Below, piece after piece: positions 16,203 through 30,568 of a stretch of 64,000 bases of DNA. Position 1 is the first letter of the stretch. Every line of letters starts with the position of its first letter. Below the pieces are notes generated by a model. It searched no databases, had not been told where the DNA came from, and was given only the letters and a program-made list of their open reading frames with translations. A program made the translations under genes and the position numbers. Origin of the DNA: Pseudomonadota bacterium (GTDB lineage: Bacteria > Pseudomonadota > Gammaproteobacteria > Steroidobacterales > Steroidobacteraceae); the NCBI GenBank assembly GCA_018241505.1, contig JAFEDS010000013.1, positions 423,902 to 487,901 of the forward strand, in the 5' to 3' direction.

Positions 16203-18743
16203 ATGATGGTGGCCAGCGATCGCCTGCCGCAGGCCGCCGGGCTCTGGCGCCCCCTGCTGGTTGCCCTCGTCGCGTTGCTCGCGGCGGTTGCGGTGCATGC
16301 CGATCCCGCTCCCTTCGACCTCGTCGGCCCGAACCTGACGGTGACCGTGACTCGTGGGGGCAAGACGTTGCCCATCACACAGGTGCCGAACCTGGCACCC
16401 GGCGATCGGCTGTGGATTCAGGCTGACTTTCCGGCGGACCAGGACGCGCACTACCTGATGGTCGCGGCCTTTCTGCGCGGCGCCACCAATCCGCCGCCCC
16501 AGGACTGGTTTTATCCCTGTGAGACCTGGAAGCCCAAATGCGTCCAGAAAGGGTTGACCGTCACGGTCCCGGCGGACGCGCAACAGCTTCTCGTCTTCCT
16601 CGCTCCCGAAACGGGCGGCGATTTCCGCACGCTCGTGAGTGCCGTGCGGGGCCGCCCCGGCGCTTTCGTCCGCAGCTCGCAGGATCTGAACCAGGCCTCG
16701 CTGGATCGCGCACGACTGGAAAAATATCTCGCGGCCATCCGCTCCATAAATGACAAGGATCCGTCCAAGCTCAAGGAAGTAGCGCCCCTGCTGGCGCGCA
16801 GCCTGGCCATCAAGTTGGATGACAAGTGTCTGGACCGCAGTGCGCTGGTACAGGCGCCGTGCCTCATGCAGGGACAGAGCTCGTTGATTCTCAACGACGG
16901 CCACAGCGCGTCGATTGTCGAAGCGCTGACATCCGGGCCCGCGAGCGATCTGGCCATGGAGGCCAGCTTCACTCCGCAGTTGAGCTACGGCTACTACAGT
17001 CCCTACATTGCTTCCGTACTCGACATCGCGCGCATTTTCGATTCATTCCGGACCGCGCAGTACCAGTACATTCCGGCCCTCGCCATGCAACAGGGCGAGC
17101 AGCTCGCGTTGTACATGAACGCGCCGCCGTCGTTCCACAATCCCAAATCGGTCATCGTGGTCGCATTGCCGGCCGTCGAGCAGGCGCAGCTCCCGCCGTT
17201 GCATGCGGTGGACCCCAAGGCCACCTTCTGCATGCGCAAGTCAACTCTGGCACTGCCGGTCGAGGGCGCGCCGTTGGTGTTCTCAACATCGTACGCACAT
17301 GACCTGACATTGCGGGTGACCCGCGATGACGGCAAGACTGTGGAGTTGCCCGCGAAAGCGGATCCGCAGCTCGGCGGCTTCCTCATTGACACCAAGGAGC
17401 TCGGGGCGACCAACGTGGGCGATCGGGTGCGCGCGTCGCTTCAGGGTTACTGGGGTTTCGAAAAATACAATGCGCCCAGCTTCGAGCTGGTGAATGTGCA
17501 CAACCAGTCGTGGGCGCTGGCCACTCCGGATGAAGGCGCGTTGATTGTCGGGCGTGACAAGACCGTGCGGCTGCAGGCCGGCAATGTCACTTGCCTCGAC
17601 AGTGTCCTGCTGAAAGGCGAAGACGGCACCGAGCACGAGGCGCAGTGGAAGCTGGTCAAGCCGGGCGAAGTGGAGGTGACCTTACCTCTGCAGACCGCCA
17701 AGCCGGGTTCCATGACATTGCTGGTGTCGCAATACGGCACTTCTCAGGCGCAGCAGCTCCACCTGCAGGCCTTCTCCGAGGGGGCGCATCTCGATGGCTT
17801 CACCTTCCGGGCCGGTGACAGTCAAGGTGTGCTGAAGGGAAGCCGCCTGGACCAGGTTACGAAGCTCATCCTCCAGGGTGTCGAGTTTGTCCCCGGCAAG
17901 CTGGATACCAACAAGGGAGGCGACGAGCTCGCCATGGTCACGCGCGATACCCAGCCCGTGACGAGCGCGAAGCAGGGCGACACGTCGATTGCCAAGGTGG
18001 TGCTGAACGACGGCCGGACTCTCGATCTCAATGTGGCTGTCAGCGCGCCGCGTCCGCGCGTGACGTTGATCGGCAAGGGTGTACGGACGGCAACGTCCTC
18101 GGCCGAGAGCAACATCGAGCTCGCGAACGCCGATCAGCTCCCACAGGATGCGAAACTGACATTCTCCGTGCGCGCCCAGACTCCCGCCACTTTTGTACGC
18201 GATGAGCAGATCGAGGTGGCCATGGCCGATGAGTCCGCATCGACCACCTTGAGCATTGCCAATGGCGGCATCACCCTCGAGAATTCAAAGGTGGCGGTGG
18301 CCACGCTCGATCCCACCAAGGCGCTGGGCTCTTCCGCCTTCGGGCCGCTGCTGTTTCGGACGATTGTGAACGGCGTGCCCGGGGACTGGCAGCCGCTGGC
18401 GACGCTCGTGCGCCTGCCCCTGTTGCGCGAGCTGCAGTGCCCGGCGTCCGCGGAGCTGGCTTGCAAGCTGTCCGGTTCGAATCTTTTCCTCGTGCAATCA
18501 GTGTCCAGCGATGCCGACTTCACGCACTCCGTGGATGTCCCGGACGGTTTCCCCGGCTACTCGCTGCCTGTTCCACATCCGGTCAATGATGTGTTGTATG
18601 TGAAACTGCGTGACGATCCAACAGCGGTCAGCCGCGCGACTCTGGCGGCGCAGCAACTTCCTCCGTCGCCGCAGGAGGTGGCGCGTGCCGCGGACCGGCA
18701 GGCGGCGGCCACCGCTCCCGCGCAGGACTCTACCCAACAGTAG
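16203..18743 (+). CDS. Large secreted protein of unknown function
   Basis: 846 residues. A hydrophobic segment (about 16-34, PLLVALVALLAAVAVHA) looks like a signal peptide cleaved after VHA, giving a periplasmic or surface protein. I do not recognise a catalytic family. The mature part starts with a beta-rich domain (FDLVGPNLTVTVTRGGKTLP), followed by a helical stretch (about 150-260), then several beta-rich segments resembling tandem Ig-like folds. The tail is alanine/glutamine-rich (APAQDSTQQ). Four or five paired cysteines (CETWKPKC, CLDRSALVQAPC) suggest disulphides. It lies 201 nt downstream of the ABC permease gene; whether they work together is open. Confidence 0.8.
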   Translation: MMVASDRLPQAAGLWRPLLVALVALLAAVAVHADPAPFDLVGPNLTVTVTRGGKTLPITQVPNLAPGDRLWIQADFPADQDAHYLMVAAFLRGATNPPPQDWFYPCETWKPKCVQKGLTVTVPADAQQLLVFLAPETGGDFRTLVSAVRGRPGAFVRSSQDLNQASLDRARLEKYLAAIRSINDKDPSKLKEVAPLLARSLAIKLDDKCLDRSALVQAPCLMQGQSSLILNDGHSASIVEALTSGPASDLAMEASFTPQLSYGYYSPYIASVLDIARIFDSFRTAQYQYIPALAMQQGEQLALYMNAPPSFHNPKSVIVVALPAVEQAQLPPLHAVDPKATFCMRKSTLALPVEGAPLVFSTSYAHDLTLRVTRDDGKTVELPAKADPQLGGFLIDTKELGATNVGDRVRASLQGYWGFEKYNAPSFELVNVHNQSWALATPDEGALIVGRDKTVRLQAGNVTCLDSVLLKGEDGTEHEAQWKLVKPGEVEVTLPLQTAKPGSMTLLVSQYGTSQAQQLHLQAFSEGAHLDGFTFRAGDSQGVLKGSRLDQVTKLILQGVEFVPGKLDTNKGGDELAMVTRDTQPVTSAKQGDTSIAKVVLNDGRTLDLNVAVSAPRPRVTLIGKGVRTATSSAESNIELANADQLPQDAKLTFSVRAQTPATFVRDEQIEVAMADESASTTLSIANGGITLENSKVAVATLDPTKALGSSAFGPLLFRTIVNGVPGDWQPLATLVRLPLLRELQCPASAELACKLSGSNLFLVQSVSSDADFTHSVDVPDGFPGYSLPVPHPVNDVLYVKLRDDPTAVSRATLAAQQLPPSPQEVARAADRQAAATAPAQDSTQQ

Positions 18744-18762
18744 TCGTTCAGGGTCTACACTC

Positions 18763-18799
18763 CCCGTTGTCCGGCTTCTCAATAACGAAAGACAACGGG
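18763..18799 (+). promoter_or_regulatory. Inverted repeat over the ribosome-binding site of the GlcG-like gene
   Basis: CCCGTTGTC (18763-18771) pairs perfectly with GACAACGGG (18791-18799). The right arm runs into GGGAGAAG just before the ATG at 18808. The structure could sequester the ribosome-binding site, act as an operator, or end the upstream message; no T-run follows, so an intrinsic terminator is less likely. Confidence 0.4.
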
Positions 18800-18807
18800 A
18801 GAAGATC

Positions 18808-19602
18808 ATGCCTATTCGAACTCACCATGCGATCGTCGGGATCGGTTTGGCTGGGAGCCTCGCTCTGGGCACAACTACTGCCATGGCGGACAACGGTTGT
18901 GCGGGCCTGCCCGATCACCACACACTGCAAACGGCGTTGGAATACGCACGCGCGCAAAGTAACGGCGGATTCAACCTCGACATGTGGGCAACGGTCGTGA
19001 ATCGCGACGGGGTCGTTTGTCAGGTTGCCTTCACCGGCGCCAATCGTGGCGCACAATGGCCCGGCAGCCGCGTCATTTCCGCTCAGAAAGCCAACACCGC
19101 GAACGCCTTCAGCCTGCCGGGACTTGCGCTGTCCACGGCCAACCTGTATGCCGCGGTTCAGCCGGGCGGTTCGCTGTATGGATTGCAGCACAGCAACCCG
19201 GTCGACACCGCGGTTGCCTACCAGGGACCTGCATCCAACTTCGGCCAGGATGACGATCCCATGACGGGCCGCCGCATCGGCGGCGTGAACGTGTTCGGCG
19301 GCGGGCTCGCCTTGTATAACTCGAAAGGTCAGCTCATCGGTGCGGTCGGTGTCAGTGGCGACACTTCCTGTGCCGACCACAACATCGCCTGGCGCACCCG
19401 GCACCGCCTGAACCTGGATTTCATTCCAGGCGGTGTCAGTGACAACCACGATGACAACATCAACTACAAGGGCCTGGTGAGCGTACCCAGCCTGGCGAAC
19501 GACTTCTCACATCCCATCTGCAAGATCGCGGGAGTCGACGGTGTGTCGCAGATCAGTGCGAACCTGCCGGCCGTGCAGAAGGTCGGGGCTGGAGGGCACT
19601 GA
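18808..19602 (+). CDS. Secreted GlcG/HbpS-family (haem-binding-like) protein
   Basis: 264 residues from the ATG at 18808, which has GGGAGAAG as ribosome-binding site. The signal peptide ends at TAMA before DNGC. The rest matches the GlcG/HbpS fold: ALEYARAQ early, VVNRDGVVCQV, then FGGGLALYNSKGQLIGAVGVSG and a following cysteine-histidine pair (SCADHNIAW). HbpS of Streptomyces binds haem and senses redox stress; many relatives have no assigned role. It is longer than typical cytoplasmic GlcG because of the export signal and insertions. It is convergent with the amidohydrolase gene, 3 nt apart. Confidence 0.82.
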   Translation: MPIRTHHAIVGIGLAGSLALGTTTAMADNGCAGLPDHHTLQTALEYARAQSNGGFNLDMWATVVNRDGVVCQVAFTGANRGAQWPGSRVISAQKANTANAFSLPGLALSTANLYAAVQPGGSLYGLQHSNPVDTAVAYQGPASNFGQDDDPMTGRRIGGVNVFGGGLALYNSKGQLIGAVGVSGDTSCADHNIAWRTRHRLNLDFIPGGVSDNHDDNINYKGLVSVPSLANDFSHPICKIAGVDGVSQISANLPAVQKVGAGGH

Positions 19603-20954: not shown

Positions 20955-21776
20955 ATGGGGCCGCTTTTGACATTGAAAGTCCACGCAGCATTGCAGGCGG
21001 CGGCCCGCAAGGGACTCGCGACGGTCGAATGCTCGCTCGATCTCGATCGCTCCGGGACCTCGGTCGAGGTGAGTGCGGAACACTGGAGCTGGCAGGGAAC
21101 CCGCTATCCCTTCCTGGGCGCCTGCAAGGACAGAACCATCTACTATTGGGCCGGACAGGACTTTCAGCCCGCGGCACGCTACTCCAGCTCACTCATCAAG
21201 TTGGTGCCCACGCAGTGGGGGCCTCCCACCTTCGAAATCGACGGCATCAAAATGTTGCCCACGGCGAAAGCCTCACCGTACGAGGACGCAAAGCGCAAGG
21301 TGGCGCTCATCCGGCCCCGCGGCAAGCAGATCCTGGATACCTGCGGTGGCCTCGGTTATTTCGCTTCCTGGTGTCTGCTGGGGCAGGCGGGACGGGTGCT
21401 GTCGTATGAGAAGAACGAGGATGTGGTTTGGTTGCGGGGCCTGAACCCGTGGTCGCCAACAGGCGAGGGCTTGAGCCTCGTGCGCGGCGACGTTGCTGTT
21501 GAAATCGCTTCCTTGCCGGATCAATCATTTGACGCCGTGTTGCATGACCCTCCCAGGTTTGGTATTGCCGGTGAGTTGTATTCGCAGGCCTTCTACGATC
21601 AACTTGCACGTGTGTTGCGCCCACGGGGGATCCTGTTCCACTACACCGGGACGCCAAACAAACTCACCAGCGGACGGGATGTCCCCAATGAGGTTGCCGG
21701 GCGATTGCGCAAGGCGGGGTTTGCAGCGGAGCTGCACGGCGACGGTGTGCTTGCCACTCGGGGCCATGGCCGCTAG
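20955..21776 (+). CDS. Class I SAM-dependent methyltransferase, archaeal-type (COG2521-like)
   Basis: 273 residues. An N-terminal domain of ~110 residues (ending in GIKMLPTAKASPYEDA) precedes a Rossmann methyltransferase. Its SAM-binding glycine motif is ILDTCGGLGYFAS (126-138), the acidic residue of strand 2 is E152, and the catalytic-type DPPR is at 198-201. DPP(Y/F/R) motifs go with methylation of amino groups in nucleic acids or proteins. The overall look matches the predicted methyltransferases mostly known from archaea. The gene ends on the same CTAG as the convergent catalase-like gene. Confidence 0.75.
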   Translation: MGPLLTLKVHAALQAAARKGLATVECSLDLDRSGTSVEVSAEHWSWQGTRYPFLGACKDRTIYYWAGQDFQPAARYSSSLIKLVPTQWGPPTFEIDGIKMLPTAKASPYEDAKRKVALIRPRGKQILDTCGGLGYFASWCLLGQAGRVLSYEKNEDVVWLRGLNPWSPTGEGLSLVRGDVAVEIASLPDQSFDAVLHDPPRFGIAGELYSQAFYDQLARVLRPRGILFHYTGTPNKLTSGRDVPNEVAGRLRKAGFAAELHGDGVLATRGHGR

Positions 21777-22999
21777 TCGAACACCTCATCGCCAGTAGGT
21801 TCGTAGTGGGGGATCGCATTCATCTGGTGACGGAATGTCGACAGCGCGAGGTACATGCGCTTGCGTGCCCGGCTCTGGTTCCCCAGTGGCCGATGCTCCG
21901 CGATGCAATGCCATGGGTTGTACGATAGCTGCTTTTCGAAGTTGATCTGCGCCGGTGAGTCGAATTTCTGCCGCGGAATGCGTAGTGTGGCCACCGAAAC
22001 GCGCGGTGACAGCTTCTCCGGCCACAAGACCGCCGCATTCTCAATCGGCATTAGGAAGGAGTCCGTCTGTAGCTGGACGCGAAAATCCAACTCCACGTCC
22101 GCGCCGTTGAGCGCTTTCACCATCGCCTCACGCAAATAGTTGTCCGATGGCCGAAAGGGCAGTCGGGGTATGGGTGTGCGCCGGCTGGTCTTCGGCCACA
22201 CTGAATACTGCATCGCCTGGCCTTCGCCGAGCAGGTAGGGTACGCAGCTAAAGTAGGGTGCCTCAAACGGACTGCTCTGCGTCTTCACCCACAGCCCCTG
22301 CATGATGAAATCCAGCAGGTGGGGGCGATGGAGATTCACGAAGTAGAAAGTGGAGGCGTTCCTGAGGCTTTCCTTCTGCAGTTGGGCGTTTGCCCGCACG
22401 TCCGGAGTCACGAATGTCGGCGTGGACACACCTGTGAAGTCTTGAGTGTACTTCTCTTCGTCCATGAGCTTTGGTCCTGGGACGCCCAGCAGCTTGATGC
22501 TGATGCTCATGAAACCGACATCGTCGATGTCCGGGGTAATGTAGGGACCCGGTCCGGAGAATCGCACCCACGCTCGATAGGTCCGCGGTTGGGCGAACAC
22601 ACCCTGCCGGAACTTCTGCGGCAGGTCAGGGTGAACGATGAATTCGGCACGCACGATGCCGTGGGTCTTGGTGTTGCCGCCGCGTTCGAAGCCACGCGGC
22701 TTCCACAGTCCCTGCATCTGTTTGCGGAAGGTGTCGATAATGGATTCGACGCATGCTTCTTCGTCGGGCAGTAGTTTTTCTTCAGCCAACGCCAGGTGTT
22801 CGTTGGTGCGCTGTCGATTGATCAATGCGGTGGTGAAGCGTGCGATCGGGTCCCGTAGTACGGCGTCAAATGGTGGGCGCAGAAGCCGGTCGAAGCGACG
22901 TTCAAACTGCAGGAGCTTGAACGTTGAGTCCGACACGAAGTTGAGGAAACGGGAGCCGGTGTTGGCGGGCGGAATAGGGCGCGCTGTGTTGGAGTCCAT
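21773..22999 (-). CDS. Catalase-like haem protein
   Basis: 408 residues, shorter than a true catalase (~480+). It has the reduced catalase core: H113 in TKTHGIVRAEF as candidate distal histidine, YRAWVRFSGP (141-150), VGFMSISIKLLGVPGPKL, and a C-terminal RKRMYLALSTFR whose Y383 would be the proximal haem ligand. Such catalase-family proteins include allene oxide synthase-like and peroxidatic enzymes, and hydrogen peroxide dismutation should not be assumed. No signal peptide is visible. It is the last gene of the six-gene operon, 9 nt after the DyP gene, and shares its TAG stop (CTAG 21773-21776) with the convergent methyltransferase gene. Confidence 0.82.
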   Translation of the reverse strand: MDSNTARPIPPANTGSRFLNFVSDSTFKLLQFERRFDRLLRPPFDAVLRDPIARFTTALINRQRTNEHLALAEEKLLPDEEACVESIIDTFRKQMQGLWKPRGFERGGNTKTHGIVRAEFIVHPDLPQKFRQGVFAQPRTYRAWVRFSGPGPYITPDIDDVGFMSISIKLLGVPGPKLMDEEKYTQDFTGVSTPTFVTPDVRANAQLQKESLRNASTFYFVNLHRPHLLDFIMQGLWVKTQSSPFEAPYFSCVPYLLGEGQAMQYSVWPKTSRRTPIPRLPFRPSDNYLREAMVKALNGADVELDFRVQLQTDSFLMPIENAAVLWPEKLSPRVSVATLRIPRQKFDSPAQINFEKQLSYNPWHCIAEHRPLGNQSRARKRMYLALSTFRHQMNAIPHYEPTGDEVFD

Positions 23000-23008
23000 A
23001 GGATTCTC

Positions 23009-24505
23009 TCATTCGGCGGCGAGCCAGCGTAGGGCGCGAATGCCGGGCAGGAAGAAGTACGCCCCGCCGGCGACCGTGACGAACTGAGGCAGGTTTTCCA
23101 GCCGGCGGGTGGGGCCGTCAGCCGCGGGTAACGAGAAGTAGTCGCAGCGCAGCCCCCCGGATCCCGGTGTGCGATTCCCGAGCAACGGATCGCTTTCGTT
23201 GTGCAACCCATTGAAGTGGGCGCTCATGATCCACGCGCTCTGCACAAACTCGAACTGCCGCTGGATGTTGGCGTTGAGGCACATGAAGTGGAGCCCCGTA
23301 TCCACGGGTGCTGGTAAGCGAAGCGCTGCTTCGGGAGTTACTTGTACGCCGTATTCACGTCCCCGACGCAGAACGCGATGAAATCGAGTCGATGCGGCAA
23401 GATCGCGTGCGCGGGCATCGGGGTTGAGGCCGAGGGTGCGTATCAACCGGGAGAGGAGACCCGCGCCGCCGGTTGGGAGATCCGCGGTGCGCGGGTTGGT
23501 GCGCCGAATGTGCGCGCCAATCGGGCAGCGATGGCCAGAAGGGTCGGATTCAAATGTGAAGTCGTTGGGGTCGGGCGCGGGTGCGCCGCCTTTGGCCGAT
23601 GCGCTTGCGACTGCTGTCGTCGGTCGCTCAACCGCTATTGATTCCCCACTTCGCGTGCGCCCAACCAACTGCGAGGCCAGCCACTCGCGCTCAACGTCGA
23701 CTCCTCCAGCGCGCGAATTGAGCACCTGCCAAAACCCCCGGACGTCCTGCCGCAATTGGCGGATAACCAGGTACGTGCCATTGCGCCCGAGATCGGCGCT
23801 GTTGGGACTGTCCTCCGCTCGGGGCAGCAACTCCTGTGGGTCGCGGCTCGCGTCGAGCACAGGGCGGGGCGTGTAGAGACCGTACTCGTTTGGGTAGCCC
23901 AGAACAAACTCACCAAGGCAGCTCAGGTTGCGGTAGGCGCGCTCCTCTTGATCTGCTACGGGTATCGCGCGCTCCCAGTCGATTTGTGGCTGCGAGAGCC
24001 CGTCCGCAAATCCAAAGGGCTCAACGCCGCCCATATCGGTAGTTGAGAGCCTATAGACGACGTCGAAGCCGGCGGCACAGGCTGACTCAATGCCACTCTG
24101 CAGCCCGGTCAAATGGCCGGGCATGGCGTACAAGAGCACCGCGACGTGCGGCTCGCGCTCGCGGCCACCCCAATCCCAACGTTCAGGCGCGCTTTCTCCC
24201 ACATCGCCGAGGCGCCGGGTGCGGTTGGCATCGCCGGCCATTCCCTCCAGGAACTCTTCTGAGAATCCGCCCACCGCGTCGGAGCTCACGCCGAGCGCAT
24301 CCATGCCTGCGCGCGTCAGCGCAATCTGCAGCGCAGTGGGAGGCACAGGCTGGATTGTGACCGCGCTGGTCACCTCAACCTCACTCAGCCAGCGACGAGC
24401 AGCAGCCGGATCCTTCACCCGCAACAGGAGGATTACGGCTTCGGTGTGGTGCTTGAACCCAAACCGCAGCAGCCCCTGGATGTCGTCGAGGTTGACTTCG
24501 CTCAT
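23009..24505 (-). CDS. DyP-type peroxidase
   Basis: 498 residues from the ATG at 24505, chosen because it forms an ATGA overlap with the upstream gene; an in-frame start five codons earlier (24520) is less likely. The DyP signature GFADG is at 165-169 with D168 as distal acid, H332 in PIGAHIRRTNPR is the proximal haem ligand, and R380 in RFHRVLRRG is the distal arginine. It should use H2O2 to oxidise dyes, phenolics or lipidic substrates. No Tat or Sec signal is present, so it is cytoplasmic or encapsulated/exported by another route. It is the fifth gene of the operon. Confidence 0.9.
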   Translation of the reverse strand: MSEVNLDDIQGLLRFGFKHHTEAVILLLRVKDPAAARRWLSEVEVTSAVTIQPVPPTALQIALTRAGMDALGVSSDAVGGFSEEFLEGMAGDANRTRRLGDVGESAPERWDWGGREREPHVAVLLYAMPGHLTGLQSGIESACAAGFDVVYRLSTTDMGGVEPFGFADGLSQPQIDWERAIPVADQEERAYRNLSCLGEFVLGYPNEYGLYTPRPVLDASRDPQELLPRAEDSPNSADLGRNGTYLVIRQLRQDVRGFWQVLNSRAGGVDVEREWLASQLVGRTRSGESIAVERPTTAVASASAKGGAPAPDPNDFTFESDPSGHRCPIGAHIRRTNPRTADLPTGGAGLLSRLIRTLGLNPDARARDLAASTRFHRVLRRGREYGVQVTPEAALRLPAPVDTGLHFMCLNANIQRQFEFVQSAWIMSAHFNGLHNESDPLLGNRTPGSGGLRCDYFSLPAADGPTRRLENLPQFVTVAGGAYFFLPGIRALRWLAAE

Positions 24506-25800
24506 AGCAACTTCAACCAAGCGAGTGCCTGTGCGGCACTCAGGTCATGTTGCTCCAGGCCCTGCCGGATCCGCGCATTGCGCTCCATATCGCACAGGGT
24601 GAGTCCCGGGTACGCCTTGTACCAGACCTGGGTGGGTAGCTGATGCCGCCGCTGAAAATACTTGAAGAAGCTTTCCCGCCGCGCCCCGCGCGTGAGCAGA
24701 AAGTCAGTGTGGGGCCAGCCGACCCCGCTACTGAAGGCGACATTCAGTCCCCAGGCGACTTTGTTGATGAAGTCATCCATGTAGGCCTGATGGCCGCCGT
24801 CGTAGTTGCTCGCAAACAGTACGCGACGCTTGCCATCCACAAACACCCACCGCGCGAAGTGAATGGTTTGTACGCGGCCCAGGTAGCCTCGATTGAACAG
24901 GTGCCGCGCGGTGAACTGGATGACAGCGAATACCGCAGGTGTCAGCCAGCGGCGCAACGCACCTGGTTTGACAGATCCGAATGCGGTGTACTGGTTGGTA
25001 ACGTCCTGGTCTTCCAGTGTCTGCAATTCCAGCAGCAATGAAGCTGAGGGGCGCGGACAGAGCTCCGGATCGCTCGTCTCCAGGCGCCGCAACCGCAAAA
25101 TCAATAGCGGCGACAGTACGAGCAAAAAGGGGGCCGCGAGCAACGCGACGAGCAGGGTGGCTACGAGGTTCATCCATTTCGCGAACAACCAACTGAGTGG
25201 AGTCGGAGCCGCCGGCGTGAGCGTCAGTCGCCGCTTGTCCACCTCCGTCCTCACGAAGTTGACCATTTCCCGCCACCGTGTACGCGCATCGTCCGCGGAC
25301 TCGAGGGGAGTGCGGTCCACTCGCGCCGATAACACTTGCTGCAGAATGCTTTCCTGTTGGATCTGCTGCACTGTGCGGCCCACCCAATTGACGTAGCTGG
25401 CGGCAACAGGCAGATCGTGAGCGCGCAGCCACGCCAGCAGATCGCCCTCGGGCGGGAAGTCCGCGCACAGGCCAAAGATCTGCCGCAACCCAGCCGGCGA
25501 GCGGGTCACCATTTCGGCCAGACAATCTGCCGCCGCACCGTCACAATCGCCCATGAAGGCCAGATAGATCGGCAGCCGCGGCCGGGGCACGCCGTACACC
25601 TCAATGTCCGCAAGAGTCGGATCGTCGAGAATCACAAACCGCGCAAAGTGCAATTGCGGGAATTGAGCGAAGGGCAGCAGGGCATTGCCGGGGTCGGCCA
25701 CTCCGGGCGAGGCATTCATGCTCAGCAGCAGTGCCCGCAGCGGCGGCAGCCGGTCCGCCGCAATCGGTGCCACGACCGTGAACTGCCCCTGGGGTGTCAT
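24502..25800 (-). CDS. Unknown protein with duplicated alpha/beta unit and a membrane segment
   Basis: 432 residues; not a family I can name. The sequence shows an internal repeat. LHFARFVILDD (50-60) followed by LPIYLAFMGDCDG (76-88) resembles IHFARWVFVDG (313-323) followed by RVLFASNYDGGHQAY (326-340). Between the halves a hydrophobic stretch (about 204-236) predicts one or two membrane passes. The HFAR units look like a ferredoxin-like/dimeric alpha-beta barrel strand, the fold of DyP peroxidases, and the gene is coupled to the DyP gene by ATGA. I infer a membrane-associated partner of the DyP or catalase-like enzyme. Confidence 0.7.
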   Translation of the reverse strand: MTPQGQFTVVAPIAADRLPPLRALLLSMNASPGVADPGNALLPFAQFPQLHFARFVILDDPTLADIEVYGVPRPRLPIYLAFMGDCDGAAADCLAEMVTRSPAGLRQIFGLCADFPPEGDLLAWLRAHDLPVAASYVNWVGRTVQQIQQESILQQVLSARVDRTPLESADDARTRWREMVNFVRTEVDKRRLTLTPAAPTPLSWLFAKWMNLVATLLVALLAAPFLLVLSPLLILRLRRLETSDPELCPRPSASLLLELQTLEDQDVTNQYTAFGSVKPGALRRWLTPAVFAVIQFTARHLFNRGYLGRVQTIHFARWVFVDGKRRVLFASNYDGGHQAYMDDFINKVAWGLNVAFSSGVGWPHTDFLLTRGARRESFFKYFQRRHQLPTQVWYKAYPGLTLCDMERNARIRQGLEQHDLSAAQALAWLKLL

Positions 25801-25802
25801 GG

Positions 25803-26240
25803 CTACTGCTGGAATTGCAGGCAGAAGTCGATCAGCCGGTCCTTGCCCCAGTACACCTTGCCCAGATAGAAGCCAGGGGAAAGCAGCCGGATTTCATCGC
25901 GGATGCGCTCCGCGACCAGGGAGGTTTGGGAGTAATCCAACACAATGCACTCCTTCCCATCCAGCCAGCTCGGTCCCTTGTAGACTTTCGCAATGATGGC
26001 TTCGACTCCGAAGGCGGTAATGCGGTTCTTGAGAAAGCCGCCGGCGGCATCGAACACCTTGCCTTGCCAGCCGAAGTGATTGATGACCTGTGCAATGAGG
26101 GTGGAGTAGCGGGTGCCGGGTGCAATGATGGCCGTGCCGTCGGCGGGTCCGTTTGGAATGTCGCCGGCGGAGTTGGCTCGGAACAGGTCGTCCAGTTGCG
26201 CCTGCGACATCGCCAACAGTTGTTTCGGATCGTAGTTCAT
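25803..26240 (-). CDS. Small protein of unknown function (possibly GXWXG/DUF4334-like)
   Basis: 145 residues, no signal peptide or membrane segment. The pattern of an early FGWQGKVFD, a central DGKECIVLDYS and a C-terminal SPGFYLGKVYWGKDRLIDF resembles small beta-barrel (lipocalin-like, GXWXG/DUF4334) proteins; this is a weak resemblance only. It starts inside the GMC stop (ATGA, 26237-26240) and ends 2 nt before the next gene. Its place in the operon suggests a lipid- or substrate-binding helper, which is inference. Confidence 0.65.
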   Translation of the reverse strand: MNYDPKQLLAMSQAQLDDLFRANSAGDIPNGPADGTAIIAPGTRYSTLIAQVINHFGWQGKVFDAAGGFLKNRITAFGVEAIIAKVYKGPSWLDGKECIVLDYSQTSLVAERIRDEIRLLSPGFYLGKVYWGKDRLIDFCLQFQQ

Positions 26241-28105
26241 GGGGGTGCTCGCTTTGCTTCTTGCAAGAGGGTTTCGGCTGCCTTTTCCGCGATCATGTAG
26301 ACCGCGCTGACCACGAAGAAGCCGGGGATCCTGGGAAACACGGAGGCGTCGACGATGCGCAACCGGCGGGTTCCGTGCACCGCAAACGAGCTGTCAACCA
26401 CGCCGCCATTGGCTCGGAGTCCGATCGGACAGGAGCAGGAGGCGTGATGCCCCCAGGCGTTGTTGCGGACGTACTCGGCCAGTGCCGGCGCTGTGCGCGC
26501 CTGTGGGCCCGGCGCGCATTCTTCTGCGAACAGCCCGCATTCGAGCAGCGGGCGATTCAATTCGCGAATGAATTGAATGGTGTCCACGACCGCGGCGAGG
26601 TCGTGGCCCTGCGTGTCGTCGCCTTCCTCGAAGTAGTGAAACTCGATGCGCGGCGGGTCTCGGGGGTCCGCCGACTGCAACGTGACGGTTCCGGCGCTGT
26701 TGTGGGTATGGGCTTTCAACAGGGCCCAGGTCAGCCGGTCGTTGTACTTCCGCAGGTTGGCGGAGAAGCCGGGATAGTAGCCGTCGAACTGCGTGGGCAG
26801 CGCCATGCAGAAGATGTCAGGATCGGGGAGGTTGGGTGATGAGCGCCGGACAAAGGCGAGGGCGGCGCCGTTTGATGAATACAGCCCGTCACGATGCTCG
26901 TGCCAACGTTGCCAGACAGGATCGCCCCGCTCGAAGCGGGCACCCTCGAGCAACTTCCAGGGCTCGCGCATGCGATACGTGACCGCGACTTCGTAGCGGT
27001 CCTGCAGGTTTCGGCCGACGCCGGGCAGGTCGACGCGGACCGCGATCCCCTGGCGCCGAAGTTGCGCGGCGGGCCCGATGCCCGACAACATCAACAACTG
27101 GGGTGTGTTGAATGCCCCGCCACACAGGATCACCTCCCGCCGCGCGTGCACTTCACGACGCTCGCCCGGTGCAGGGGAGGCATTACAGTGAGCCTTGTAG
27201 AGCCGGGAACCTTTCAGGTACTCGACTCCGCAAGCGGCCCCCTCAGCGTCAAAGAGCACTCGGGTTGCGAGTGCATTCAACTCAATGTGCAGCCGGTCGC
27301 CGTGCTTTGCTGCCACATCGAGAAGCCGCTCCCGCGATCCGATACGCTGGCGCGAGCAGGTTGAGACGGGCGTGTAGCAAAGTCCCTCGAAGTCCTTCGC
27401 CCGCCACGGGCGGGCATTGGGATCCGCGGCGCTGTGAATCCATTGGGCGATCCTGGCAAGCGGATGCTTCAGGCGGCGGGCAAACTCGACGCTGGTCACC
27501 GCAATCATATTCAGCAACGCCTCGTCGCCGAGCGCTTCGGCTTCCAGTTCCTTGGGAGGTCTTTCGGTTTGCAGCCAGCCATCCCAGCCGTGTCCCGTGG
27601 GATCGAGTCCCAGATGCCGCAGAATCCGCCATAGGGGTCTGTGATGGCAGGCCTCGAGCTTGCGTGCATGCCGGCGCATACTGCGGGCGCTCCAGGAGCC
27701 GTCGCCTGTGAGTGCGCGGATGTGATTCCAGTCGGAATCATGCGCAAGCATGAAGATCATTGCGTTGTGTGCTGTACAGCCACCCAGCGTGGCCGCTCGC
27801 GGATACAACACGCCGCCGGTATGGGGGTCGGCTTTGAAATCGCGCTTCTGTTGCGTGTCATCCGAGTAGTGACGCACTGTGAAGTCCCAGCGCATCGCCG
27901 GGTTCTCACACGCGAAGGCGTGGAAACCGGGGACCGAGTAATCATCCGGCAGCCGTGGATCCGCCGTTTGCAGGTGATCGCCGCCCGCCTCGAGAACAAA
28001 CACCCGCATCCCGGACTCGGCCAGCCGGGCGGCGAGGGTTCCACCCCCCGCGCCCGATCCAACAATTACGTAGTCCCAGCCGCCTTCCGCATCGCTCATG
28101 GACAT
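26237..28105 (-). CDS. GMC-family FAD-dependent oxidoreductase
   Basis: 622 residues. The FAD dinucleotide-binding motif VGSGAGGGTLAARL is near 15-28, with the ribose-binding FVLEAGGD after it. The second GMC signature region is LCGGAFNTPQLLMLSGIGP near 325. The C-terminal catalytic histidine lies in GHHASCSCPIG, followed by LRIVDASVFPRIPGF. Such enzymes oxidise alcohols, sugars or sterol-like hydroxyls and pass electrons to O2 or a cytochrome. The gene begins 3 nt after the di-haem cytochrome gene, so an electron link between the two is plausible. No signal peptide is visible. Confidence 0.9.
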   Translation of the reverse strand: MSMSDAEGGWDYVIVGSGAGGGTLAARLAESGMRVFVLEAGGDHLQTADPRLPDDYSVPGFHAFACENPAMRWDFTVRHYSDDTQQKRDFKADPHTGGVLYPRAATLGGCTAHNAMIFMLAHDSDWNHIRALTGDGSWSARSMRRHARKLEACHHRPLWRILRHLGLDPTGHGWDGWLQTERPPKELEAEALGDEALLNMIAVTSVEFARRLKHPLARIAQWIHSAADPNARPWRAKDFEGLCYTPVSTCSRQRIGSRERLLDVAAKHGDRLHIELNALATRVLFDAEGAACGVEYLKGSRLYKAHCNASPAPGERREVHARREVILCGGAFNTPQLLMLSGIGPAAQLRRQGIAVRVDLPGVGRNLQDRYEVAVTYRMREPWKLLEGARFERGDPVWQRWHEHRDGLYSSNGAALAFVRRSSPNLPDPDIFCMALPTQFDGYYPGFSANLRKYNDRLTWALLKAHTHNSAGTVTLQSADPRDPPRIEFHYFEEGDDTQGHDLAAVVDTIQFIRELNRPLLECGLFAEECAPGPQARTAPALAEYVRNNAWGHHASCSCPIGLRANGGVVDSSFAVHGTRRLRIVDASVFPRIPGFFVVSAVYMIAEKAAETLLQEAKRAPP

Positions 28106-28108
28106 CCG

Positions 28109-30568
28109 TCAGAAGGTCTTCAGGAACGTAATCAGTGCGCGCTTGTCATCGTCGCTCAGCTCCGGCTCCTTGCCGAACGACTGCTCGTCCTTGCTGAGCC
28201 CATCCTGGTCATTGAACTGCCGGGTGCCGAAATAGTGGCCGCGATTGCCGACCAGGTCCGGGCACTTGCTGAGCGCCAACAGGGGCCGGGCGAGGTTGGA
28301 CAGCCTGCTTTCCAATTTCTCATCGGACTGGCCGATGCTGCCGAGCAGGTCTGCCTGCAACGTCAACAACACCTTGGTCACTTCACGGTAGTGGTTGACC
28401 CGGGCCGCGGCGGTGTCGCTCTCGGGCAGCAACCTGAGGTTGGCGAGCAGCCCCACCGGCATGCCTTTGGGGATGGGCCCGATCTCAATGTCGCCGCCCT
28501 GGCTCACAAATCGAGGTAACCACCAGTGTGCGTCCTTGCGCAGTGGCTGCAGTGCCTCCGGCACGAATCCCACCGGGATGGTCAACTGACTGACCTGGGT
28601 CGTCCGGTCGATTGCGCCGGGAATCTTGTTGCCGAGGACCGCATCCTGGTCGCGCTTCTCGGGCCACAGCATCTGCTCAATGGAGGCATCAAACACCTTC
28701 ACGCGGCTCGCGACTGAAGGATCGGGGTCAAAAGGCCCGACCGAGTTGTTCAGGAGGAAGGGCGCTGTCGACCACATGCTGATGAGCGACGGCACGCGCG
28801 TGTAGCCACGGCCGCCGCCAGGCATTTCGTACTGGAAGGGCTCGCCGGTGAACGGATCGTACAGGGTCACCGCGCCCACGCTCGGCAGTTGCTTGTACGA
28901 ATGAGACGAGAAGTTGTCCCAGATGTTGCCGGCAATCCCGTTGGTGGCCAGCGGGCTGCAGGCATTCGTACGCAACAGGGTGACGGGTATGCGAGCGTCC
29001 GTTGACAGGTAGTTACCATCCAGGAAATCCGCAGCGGCCACGATCGCGCGCATGAGCGTCTTGTATTGATCCGACTGTGTCCAGGTCCAGTAGCGCTTGA
29101 AGCATTCGAGATACAGCGAGCCCGCGCACCGCTCCGAATCGAGATTCAGATCCGGCGGCGGTGGCGGCGCCTTGCTGGAATGGCAGCGCGCGCAGGTGTC
29201 CGCAAACACCTCCTTGCCATGAGCCAGGAGCTTCGCGTCGCTGCTCAGGTACTGACTGCCGCCGGGCGCGTCCTTCAACCGGTCCGGCCGTGCCGCTTTG
29301 AGGAAGAAGAGTGCCTGGTTGCCGGTACCGGCTTCCGTGGCCTGCCAGTAGCTGGAGTTCTTCTGCGCAACCGCAATCTCAATCGGCGAGATGGGCTTGC
29401 CGCCCACCACCGGATTGAAGTGCGTCAACCATTCCTCGCTGAACAGGCCGATGTTGAGATACACGCGGTTCAGGGCGCCGAGCAGGCCCACTGAGTCGGC
29501 GCCATCCTTGAGCACGTGCGGTGTGCGCACGACACCGTTGGCAGCATCATAGTAGCCGGCCAACTGCTTGTTGTTGAGCTCGCCGCCGGCGAGCTTCTCG
29601 TGCCAGAGTTTCTGGGCGAGCCCCAGGCGCGAGACGAAGTCGTACACCGCGTTCATGGTGCGCGGATTGTTGATGTTGTCCGTGGAGATCAGCGAGGTGT
29701 CCATGGAGCCCGGCCGGTAGGTCTTCACCAACTGGTACATGAAGTTCTTCTGACCTTGCGGATGATTCGAGTTGAATATGAACAGGCGGTCGACCCACAT
29801 GTACTGGGCACCCACCGATGAGCTGAGATTGGCGTAGGTCGGGGCGCCGGGATCGGCCGGCGGCGCGACGGGACTCGGTCCCACGTGGCAGAAGCCGCAC
29901 GACATGCCGACCCGGTAGGGGCGGATGAGATCCTTGCGGTTGTAGTAGGAAGGATCGGTGTAGTAGCGCTCGGGATCCCACTCCTTCGCCGCCTTGGCGT
30001 CGAAGTCGGGATTGGGAAACAGCCGCAGCCCGAGGATGCCGGTGGCGTAACCGTAGTAGGAACCCACAGGCTCGGTTTTCCCGCGCGCGCCGGTAACGAC
30101 GCCCGGGTATTTCTTCTCGTTCTCGAAGGGGTCGGCCGGACAGTCCTGGCCGCGCACATCGAGCCACAGGCCGTGGCGCGCCGGATCCGGGCCTGTTGGA
30201 TTCTGGAAGCAGGGCTCGTTGACTAACCCGAGATAGGTCCAGCGATTGGCGCGCGAGTAGCCGAGGCTGGGATGCGAGCTGATGGCCTTCAACAGATCGA
30301 ACGCCCCGAAAGTGTACTGCGTCATCTCGTTCCAGAAGCGGTCGTTGCCGCCGGTCCAGACGAGCCACATGTTGCGACCCTTGATTTCCTCCGCACTGAG
30401 GGCAAGCCCGCCATCCATGTCGTGGAAATAGTCCTCATCGGCATGCGGGAACGAGGCGGCGGTCCGGCCCGCGGCCAGAGCCTCGTCCTTGACGGCCCCG
30501 GATTGGGGTTTGGGCTGGCAGGCCGCCAGTAGCAGGCACAGCACCGCCAGTGTTGTTCTCAACCTCAT
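28109..30568 (-). CDS. Di-haem c-type cytochrome lipoprotein (RoxA-like haem placement)
   Basis: 819 residues from the ATG at 30568, which has a GGGGGAG ribosome-binding site and starts a clean signal peptide with lipobox LLAAC (C17); the frame is open 40 codons further but without such a signal. Two haem c motifs are CGFCH (224-228) and CARCH (459-463). The long region before the first haem, and ~235 residues between haems, differ from MauG/CcpA peroxidases. They recall the rubber oxygenases RoxA/RoxB, where the first haem is near residue 190. It would sit on the outer or inner membrane facing the periplasm. It is the first gene of the operon. Substrate unknown. Confidence 0.8.
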   Translation of the reverse strand: MRLRTTLAVLCLLLAACQPKPQSGAVKDEALAAGRTAASFPHADEDYFHDMDGGLALSAEEIKGRNMWLVWTGGNDRFWNEMTQYTFGAFDLLKAISSHPSLGYSRANRWTYLGLVNEPCFQNPTGPDPARHGLWLDVRGQDCPADPFENEKKYPGVVTGARGKTEPVGSYYGYATGILGLRLFPNPDFDAKAAKEWDPERYYTDPSYYNRKDLIRPYRVGMSCGFCHVGPSPVAPPADPGAPTYANLSSSVGAQYMWVDRLFIFNSNHPQGQKNFMYQLVKTYRPGSMDTSLISTDNINNPRTMNAVYDFVSRLGLAQKLWHEKLAGGELNNKQLAGYYDAANGVVRTPHVLKDGADSVGLLGALNRVYLNIGLFSEEWLTHFNPVVGGKPISPIEIAVAQKNSSYWQATEAGTGNQALFFLKAARPDRLKDAPGGSQYLSSDAKLLAHGKEVFADTCARCHSSKAPPPPPDLNLDSERCAGSLYLECFKRYWTWTQSDQYKTLMRAIVAAADFLDGNYLSTDARIPVTLLRTNACSPLATNGIAGNIWDNFSSHSYKQLPSVGAVTLYDPFTGEPFQYEMPGGGRGYTRVPSLISMWSTAPFLLNNSVGPFDPDPSVASRVKVFDASIEQMLWPEKRDQDAVLGNKIPGAIDRTTQVSQLTIPVGFVPEALQPLRKDAHWWLPRFVSQGGDIEIGPIPKGMPVGLLANLRLLPESDTAAARVNHYREVTKVLLTLQADLLGSIGQSDEKLESRLSNLARPLLALSKCPDLVGNRGHYFGTRQFNDQDGLSKDEQSFGKEPELSDDDKRALITFLKTF

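What the first reader, a model, noticed from the sequence alone, without database searches (positions are those of the whole stretch)
21773..30568. Candidate undescribed oxidative module: di-haem cytochrome lipoprotein, GMC flavoprotein, two unknowns, DyP peroxidase, catalase-like protein
Six minus-strand genes are spaced by -4 to +9 nt, so they are almost certainly one operon. They combine three haem proteins of different classes with a flavin oxidase and two proteins I cannot assign. A GMC enzyme can make H2O2 or reduce a cytochrome, and DyP and catalase-like enzymes use peroxides. The set looks like a pathway that oxidises a hydrophobic substrate (terpenoid, polyisoprenoid, lipid or lignin-like) and handles the peroxide. 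Only the cytochrome has an export signal, so the cell-compartment logic is unexplained.
Basis: partly seen in the sequence, partly recalled or inferred. Interest (0 to 1): 0.78.

Follow-up and report, generated by a model that had tools for sequence, protein, structure and literature searches.

The report
Conserved six-gene redox operon, probably lipid-oxidising
Six adjacent bacterial genes for haem and flavin enzymes form a real, widely shared set, of which no description was found, that most likely oxidises a lipid-like molecule at the cell membrane, although the substrate has not been shown.

Summary
Six minus-strand genes at 30568-21773 have gaps of +3, -4, +2, -4 and +9 nt. The set is conserved far beyond relatives. 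A scan with P3 matched 225 stretches, of which 80 loci were kept. Of the 46 kept loci with at least 9 kb on both sides, 37 hold all six families, in several proteobacterial groups, Verrucomicrobia and a Solirubrobacterales record.

The two unknowns now have predicted folds. P3 resembles Tcur_1030, a lipocalin-like barrel. P4 is a tandem ABM/SchA-like barrel with a long hydrophobic helix. P4 is tied to the DyP: in 299 genomes, all 20 with P4 also have a P5-type DyP.

The peroxide logic is weakened. The 'catalase' has Asn at the catalase distal His (59 of 59), and the GMC enzyme has Phe for BetA's second catalytic Asn (65 of 66).

Lipid hydrolases lie near the set in 11 of 80 loci and in sister clusters. 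Best reading: a membrane-linked lipid-oxidising module, with chemistry and substrate inferred. Nine searches of open-access papers found no description.

The parts
28109..30568 (-). P1: large di-haem c-type cytochrome, predicted lipoprotein
   Evidence: two CxxCH motifs kept in 70 of 70 homologues; lipobox-like pattern in residues 9-45 of 51 of 70 (rough pattern); NCBIfam di-haem cytochrome c peroxidase match at 26.9 bits, cut-off 150
26237..28105 (-). P2: GMC-family FAD oxidoreductase with His554 kept and Phe597 at the second catalytic position
   Evidence: Pfam; conservation in 66 members; alignment to E. coli BetA
25803..26240 (-). P3: 145-aa protein, predicted lipocalin-like barrel, without a Pfam or NCBIfam match
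24502..25800 (-). P4: predicted tandem ABM/SchA-like ferredoxin barrel with a central hydrophobic helix (residues 202-243); partner of the DyP
23009..24505 (-). P5: DyP-type peroxidase with the Asp, Arg and proximal His kept
   Evidence: D168, R334, R335 and H376 in 63 of 63
21773..22999 (-). P6: catalase-fold haem protein with Asn in place of the distal His
   Evidence: profile hits 3e4w and coral AOS 1u5u ahead of catalases; N109 in 59 of 59, Y383 and R379 in 59 of 59; register

Best explanation
The six genes are one conserved redox module that oxidises a lipid-derived, probably fatty-acyl or similar hydrophobic, substrate at the inner membrane. Shown at sequence level: the gene set, its conservation, and two tightly coupled sub-pairs (P1+P2 and P4+P5). 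Inferred: P4 anchors the DyP at the membrane and helps it reach the lipid, and the DyP drives a peroxide-dependent one-electron oxidation; P6, which has a catalase fold but no distal His, rearranges or cleaves the oxidised or hydroperoxy lipid instead of removing H2O2; P3 carries the hydrophobic intermediate; P2 (GMC) oxidises a product and its electrons end on the exported di-haem cytochrome P1. How electrons cross from a P2 without an export signal to an exported P1 is not explained.
For: Six-gene set in 37 of 46 untruncated P3 loci across classes and phyla, and in a genome of another class at 46-63% identity. In 30 thinned loci the distance matrices of all 15 protein pairs correlate, highest for P1-P2 (r 0.92) and P4-P5 (r 0.90), 0 of 500 permutations each (shared species history not removed). 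P4 genomes are a subset of P5-type DyP genomes, 20 of 20, the own genome included, with DyP fused or within the roughly 1.5 kb held in 18 of 19 other loci. Lipid hydrolases near the set in 11 of 80 loci: patatin in 6, Tle1-like in 3, alpha/beta hydrolase in 3 (one locus has two), in 10 of the 11 within 0.4 kb of a set gene; the own genome's patatin density (5 in 7.9 Mb) would give about 0.9 patatin in the 1.38 Mb searched, a rough yardstick. Also patatin in Rhizobium, NGR234 and (fused to GMC) Mesorhizobium clusters and LCAT-like in G045. The window genome has a homologue of the cluster patatins elsewhere. P3 model lipocalin-like. P6 profile matches 3e4w (E 5e-9) and coral allene oxide synthase 1u5u (E 2.5e-7, best stretch 62 residues) ahead of catalases (best E 0.003). 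In giant fusions a P450 sits before P4-DyP, where Agrobacterium has the catalase-like gene.
Against: No substrate or activity is shown. No such hydrolase was found in 69 of 80 loci (only relatives of nine query proteins were sought) nor in the window. No lipoxygenase was found in the genome, but the control for that search rang nowhere, so it shows nothing. P4's best fold matches act on aromatic polyketides, not lipids. P6 lacks the distal His and Thr that coral AOS uses. Cupriavidus and a relative (6 loci) carry P1-P2-P3 without P4-P6 in the stretch held, in L065 next to what looks by eye like a molybdenum-hydroxylase pair, so the set is partly separable. P6 is the least coupled member (r 0.46 with P1).
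Confidence: 0.45

Rival explanations
1. The module tailors an aromatic or polyketide-like small molecule. P4 is an ABM/SchA-type accessory protein or decarboxylase, DyP and GMC oxidise the aromatic product, and P3 binds it.
For: P4's best fold matches are WhiE-ORFI and the polyketide decarboxylase Abx(+)O; ABM proteins work in aromatic polyketide pathways (PMC6689052, passages).
Against: A shared fold shows no function.
Confidence: 0.2
2. The module is a repair or detoxification system for lipid hydroperoxides made by stress, not a pathway with a dedicated product.
For: Peroxidase and catalase-related enzymes together with phospholipase-like proteins; catalase-related enzymes elsewhere act on fatty-acid hydroperoxides (PMC5617202, PMC11719350, passages).
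Against: Patchy distribution, own genome counted: P3 in 3 of 299 phylum genomes and P4 in 3 of 60 relatives, unusual for a general defence; a GMC enzyme and a di-haem cytochrome are not obviously needed for repair.
Confidence: 0.2
3. The module degrades exogenous aromatic or lignin-like compounds, DyP being the key enzyme.
For: DyP family and a GMC partner.
Against: In the window only P1 looks exported (by eye and hydropathy); hydrolases near the set are lipid-type in part of the loci.
Confidence: 0.08
4. The genes are merely neighbours with separate roles in oxidative stress.
For: Cupriavidus loci have P1-P2-P3 without the others in the stretch held, and some clusters split into two divergent units.
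Against: 37 of 46 loci with all six, in several gene orders; correlated divergence; tight spacing.
Confidence: 0.05

Closest known systems
Coral allene oxide synthase / catalase-related hydroperoxide enzymes (PDB 1u5u; PMC5617202)
   Same: Catalase-type haem protein; the P6 profile matches it better than true catalases (E 2.5e-7 against 0.003), though over a best stretch of only 62 residues.
   Different: Distal His67 is Asn109 and, in the same register, Thr66 is Gly108 in P6; no lipoxygenase domain; separate gene.
DyP-type peroxidases
   Same: P5 keeps Asp, Arg and His and matches solved DyPs (best 8re3, E 1.8e-40).
   Different: Travels with P4, a partner for which my paper searches found no description.
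WhiE-ORFI / SchA-CurD-like ABM proteins (PDB 9lmn)
   Different: 10% identity, no sequence-level match, central hydrophobic helix, DyP partner.
RoxA-like di-haem cytochromes (Pfam PF21419)
   Same: Large di-haem c-type proteins; PF21419 members sit beside P1 homologues in some clusters.
   Different: The window P1 has no PF21419 match; 2 of 25 homologues do; profile comparison aligns only 26 columns around the haem motif.
NGR234 pNGR234a catalase/di-haem cytochrome/patatin cluster, and Rhizobium cytochrome/GMC/patatin cluster
   Same: NGR234 has a P6-like catalase, a RoxA-like di-haem cytochrome and a patatin; Rhizobium and S. fredii CCBAU 45436 have P1-like and P2-like proteins and a patatin-like protein.
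   Different: No P3, P4 or P5 match in those stretches; the NGR234 cytochrome is not a P1 match and its catalase keeps the distal His.

Membership tests
Monofunctional catalase (P6) | distal haem His | tested here: not met
   Asn109 in 59 of 59 module members aligns with the His of catalase 6pt7
Monofunctional catalase (P6) | proximal Tyr with Arg four residues before it | tested here: met
   R379 and Y383 in 59 of 59; motif recalled
Catalase-related allene oxide synthase (P6) | profile similarity to 1u5u | tested here: met
   E 2.5e-7, best stretch 62 residues; profile built with three relatives from outside the module
Catalase-related allene oxide synthase (P6) | distal Thr66-His67 | tested here: not met
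   Gly108-Asn109 in 59 of 59, in the register; residues from PMC5617202 passages
DyP-type peroxidase (P5) | catalytic Asp in GxxDG, distal Arg, proximal His | tested here: met
   D168, R334, R335, H376 in 63 of 63; motif recalled
DyP-type peroxidase (P5) | curated family score | tested here: not met
   TIGR01413 74.8 bits, cut-off 100.5; Pfam Dyp_perox_C 18.9, cut-off 20
DyP-type peroxidase (P5) | peroxidase activity | not testable with these tools
   no assay
GMC oxidoreductase (P2) | GMC N and C domains | tested here: met
   Pfam 8.6e-21 and 3.2e-25
GMC oxidoreductase (P2) | second catalytic Asn or His | tested here: not met
   Phe597 in 65 of 66; BetA has Asn there; its catalytic role is recalled
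RoxA-like cytochrome (P1) | PF21419 domain | tested here: inconclusive
   no match in the window protein, match in 2 of 25 homologues; no rubber oxygenase among the 53 PDB profile hits
ABM/SchA-like barrel (P4) | tandem ferredoxin-like barrel fold | tested here: met
ABM/SchA-like barrel (P4) | sequence-level family match | tested here: not met
   no Pfam or NCBIfam match, no convincing PDB profile match
Lipocalin-like barrel (P3) | beta-barrel fold | tested here: met

The most novel reading that the evidence does not exclude
A previously undescribed, widespread bacterial lipid-oxidation pathway. A membrane-anchored ABM-barrel/DyP pair oxidises an acyl chain; a catalase-fold enzyme that gave up its distal His, or in other lineages a P450 beside the same pair, reshapes the hydroperoxide; and a GMC/di-haem cytochrome pair finishes the oxidation. 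It would be a bacterial oxylipin-like route without lipoxygenase.
Probability: 0.25. Interest if true: 0.82.

Novelty: new variant of a known kind. Interest (0 to 1): 0.62.

Why it matters
P3 relatives were found in 225 stretches of a one-genome-per-species collection, so the module is not rare, yet three of its six window proteins (P3, P4, P6) have no Pfam or NCBIfam match. It offers a testable case of two known haem folds in unusual settings: a catalase fold without its distal His, and a DyP that travels with an ABM-like partner. If the lipid reading is right, it adds a bacterial oxylipin-type chemistry with no lipoxygenase.

Tried and rejected
Simple H2O2 cycle (GMC makes H2O2, catalase removes it): set aside for lack of the catalase distal His and of the second GMC catalytic residue. 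An early thought that Thr112-His113 of P6 was the Thr-His pair of coral AOS was dropped: position 113 is Gln in 31 and His in 27 of 59 and the HMMER register puts the catalase His on Asn109. P1 as a RoxA rubber oxygenase: not supported. The 143-aa protein of the S. fredii cluster as a P3, and NGR234 L016 11260-11955 as a P4: no match. P3 as a DUF4334-like protein (recalled idea): no such Pfam match in 42 members. Lipoxygenase in the own genome: none found, but the control was silent. Phage records: no match to P4. Promoter and terminator scan: nothing above chance. A second copy of P5 or P6 in the own genome: none found at E 0.001. Papers: nine searches gave no description of the set in their listings; the library is open-access PubMed Central only, and most listed papers were not opened.
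Full report
Observation. The window lies in an unnamed draft genome of 7.9 Mb in 46 contigs. A methyltransferase-like gene on the plus strand converges on P6 and overlaps its end by 4 nt; among the 83 loci scanned it is next to the set only in G005, the same-genus genome (fetched twice, as L010 and L022).

Family assignment. Pfam and NCBIfam recognise P2 (GMC) firmly, P5 (DyP) by models under their cut-offs, P1 only weakly, and P3, P4 and P6 not at all.

Conservation. G005 has all six in the same order at 70-86% identity, and G294, of another class of the phylum, has all six in the same order at 46-63%. G129, of another order, has P3-P4-P5-P6 and a divergent GMC-type protein upstream. A scan of genome contigs with a P3 alignment found 225 matched stretches; the best 80 were kept as loci. 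Forty-eight of 80 hold all six families; of the 46 with at least 9 kb on both sides, 37 do, with P1 in 46, P2 in 42, P4 in 41, P5 in 41 and P6 in 40. The nine misses are L034, L074 and L079 (no P2), L065, L072, L078 and L084 (no P4-P6), L093 (no P2, P4-P6) and L090 (no P6). Many kept loci are Variovorax, so the counts are not independent. By record title the all-six loci include Variovorax, Rhodanobacter, Rhodoferax, Rhizobacter, Leptothrix, Novosphingobium, Sphingomonas, Sphingobium, Phenylobacterium, Litoreibacter, Acidisoma, Paraburkholderia, a Verrucomicrobia MAG, a Pyrinomonadaceae MAG (P1 cut by the contig end) and a Solirubrobacterales record; I did not check for mis-binned contigs. Gene order varies: P1-P2-P3-P4-P5-P6 in 26 loci (30 if four with overlapping open frames are read so); divergent P3-P4-P5 and P6-P2-P1 units in the nine loci of two patterns, mostly titled Alphaproteobacteria; P3-P6-P4-P5 in three Verrucomicrobia or Spartobacteria loci.

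Coupling. In 30 thinned loci all 15 pairwise distance matrices correlate; the strongest pairs are P1-P2 (0.92) and P4-P5 (0.90), the weakest P1-P6 (0.46), each with 0 of 500 permutations as high. Shared species history is not removed. In one sample of 299 genomes of the phylum, P4 occurs in 20 and P5-type DyP in 24, the own genome counted; all 20 are among the 24 (lists compared by eye). In the 19 P4 loci other than the window's, 18 have DyP fused or within the roughly 1.5 kb held, in L129 and L133 as a cut-off match; in the last genome, G330, a DyP match lies on the same contig within 3 kb. Five of the 19 are P450-P4-DyP fusions, and two show a catalase-like gene inside the stretch held; G294 and G129 have theirs further out. 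Plasmids show the same: P450-P4-DyP giants in Novosphingobium, Pararhizobium and Sulfitobacter; P4, DyP and P450 as separate genes in Skermanella; catalase-like, P4 C-terminal half and DyP in Agrobacterium. Read by eye, the P450 I-helices lack the usual acid before Thr; the comparison motif is recalled, so this is only a hint of peroxide-type P450s.

Active sites. P5 keeps Asp168, Arg334, Arg335 and His376 in 63 of 63. P6 keeps Arg379 and Tyr383 in 59 of 59. In HMMER's alignment of the P6 profile to catalase 6pt7 the distal His falls on Asn109; Asn109 is in 59 of 59 module members, while three relatives outside the module (NGR234, Agrobacterium, G045) have His. P6's best structural relatives by profile are 3e4w (E 5e-9) and coral allene oxide synthase (E 2.5e-7, best stretch 62 residues), ahead of catalases (best E 0.003); the profile includes those three relatives. 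Only 1 of 28 members matches Pfam Catalase. P2 keeps His554, aligned with BetA's His, but has Phe597 where BetA has Asn, in 65 of 66. P1 keeps both haem motifs in 70 of 70. Export was judged by eye and hydropathy: P1 has a lipobox-like pattern in 51 of 70, although the window P1 gives no hydropathy peak over the threshold used; 19 of 66 P2 and 6 of 63 P5 homologues give such a peak somewhere, the window's do not.

Lipid link. Among the 80 P3 loci, patatin-like proteins are in L026, L079, L080, L092, L097 and L101, Tle1-like phospholipase proteins in L085, L095 and L099, and an alpha/beta hydrolase in L066, L074 and L097: 11 loci in all. L101, L092, L079, L066, L095 and L085 were typed with Pfam; the others by similarity to these. 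In 10 of the 11 loci a hydrolase frame lies within 0.4 kb of a set gene; in L026 it is 4.2 kb away. The own genome's density of patatin matches (5 in 7.9 Mb) would give about 0.9 in the 1.38 Mb of these loci against 6 seen; this is a rough yardstick from one genome, and the hydrolase queries were chosen because they recurred. The other 69 of 80 loci show none of these in the stretch held, and neither does the window. G129 also has the alpha/beta hydrolase, G045 an LCAT-like lipase, Rhizobium and NGR234 patatins and Mesorhizobium a GMC-patatin fusion. The window genome has a homologue of the cluster patatins on contig 22, not near the module; among 60 relatives (7 with any match at E 0.001) the only other close one is in G005, the one other same-genus genome with P4. 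Both are the largest genomes of the sample, so this is weak.

Interpretation. I favour a membrane-linked lipid oxidation module at 0.45. The set, the P4-DyP bond, the loss of the catalase distal His and the GMC change are shown at sequence level; the substrate, the order of steps and the electron path are inferred. Fatty-acid hydroperoxide chemistry by catalase-related enzymes, and catalase fusions with lipid dioxygenases in cyanobacteria, are described in PMC5617202 and PMC11719350 (passages only); ABM proteins in polyketide pathways in PMC6689052 (passages); haem-binding ferredoxin barrels in PMC4835899 (abstract and outline). Against the favourite: P4's nearest folds act on polyketides, the hydrolases are in a minority of loci, and Cupriavidus keeps P1-P2-P3 next to a molybdenum-hydroxylase-like pair (L065, by eye).

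Novelty. Nine searches of the open-access library listed no paper that appeared to describe this set; subscription papers are not covered. The enzymes belong to known superfamilies, so I rate the set a new variant of a known kind, with a categorically new pathway as the bolder reading.

Noticed in passing
L004 6721-11052, L005 6784-11055, L007 6691-11553 (plasmids), L117-L119, L121, L122: Giant single proteins join a P450, the P4-type barrel and a DyP in that order; one search listed no paper on such fusions.
   Followed up: partly
L019 12786-17474: Mesorhizobium protein of 1562 aa that joins a GMC oxidoreductase to a patatin-like domain (just under Pfam's cut-off), beside a P1 homologue.
   Followed up: no
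L065 10440-13186 (Cupriavidus): P1-P2-P3 is followed by a large protein and a small ferredoxin-like one that look by eye like a molybdenum hydroxylase pair, so P1 may take electrons from more than one dehydrogenase.
   Followed up: no
L078 10597-13674, L067 2245-3813, L018 6408-9846: RoxA-like di-haem cytochromes sit directly upstream of P1 homologues; PF21419 was matched in L018 and L078, and the L067 protein aligns with them.
   Followed up: partly
window 20955-21776: Methyltransferase-like gene on the plus strand converges on P6 with a 4-nt overlap; seen beside the set only in the same-genus genome.
   Followed up: partly
P6 position 113 (window 22661-22663): The residue after the invariant Thr112 is His in 27, Gln in 31 and Tyr in 1 of 59 homologues; the reason for this two-state position is unexplained.
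   Followed up: no
window 18610-19602: ORF whose later part looks like an exported protein, perhaps of the HbpS/GlcG kind (recalled, by eye).
   Followed up: no
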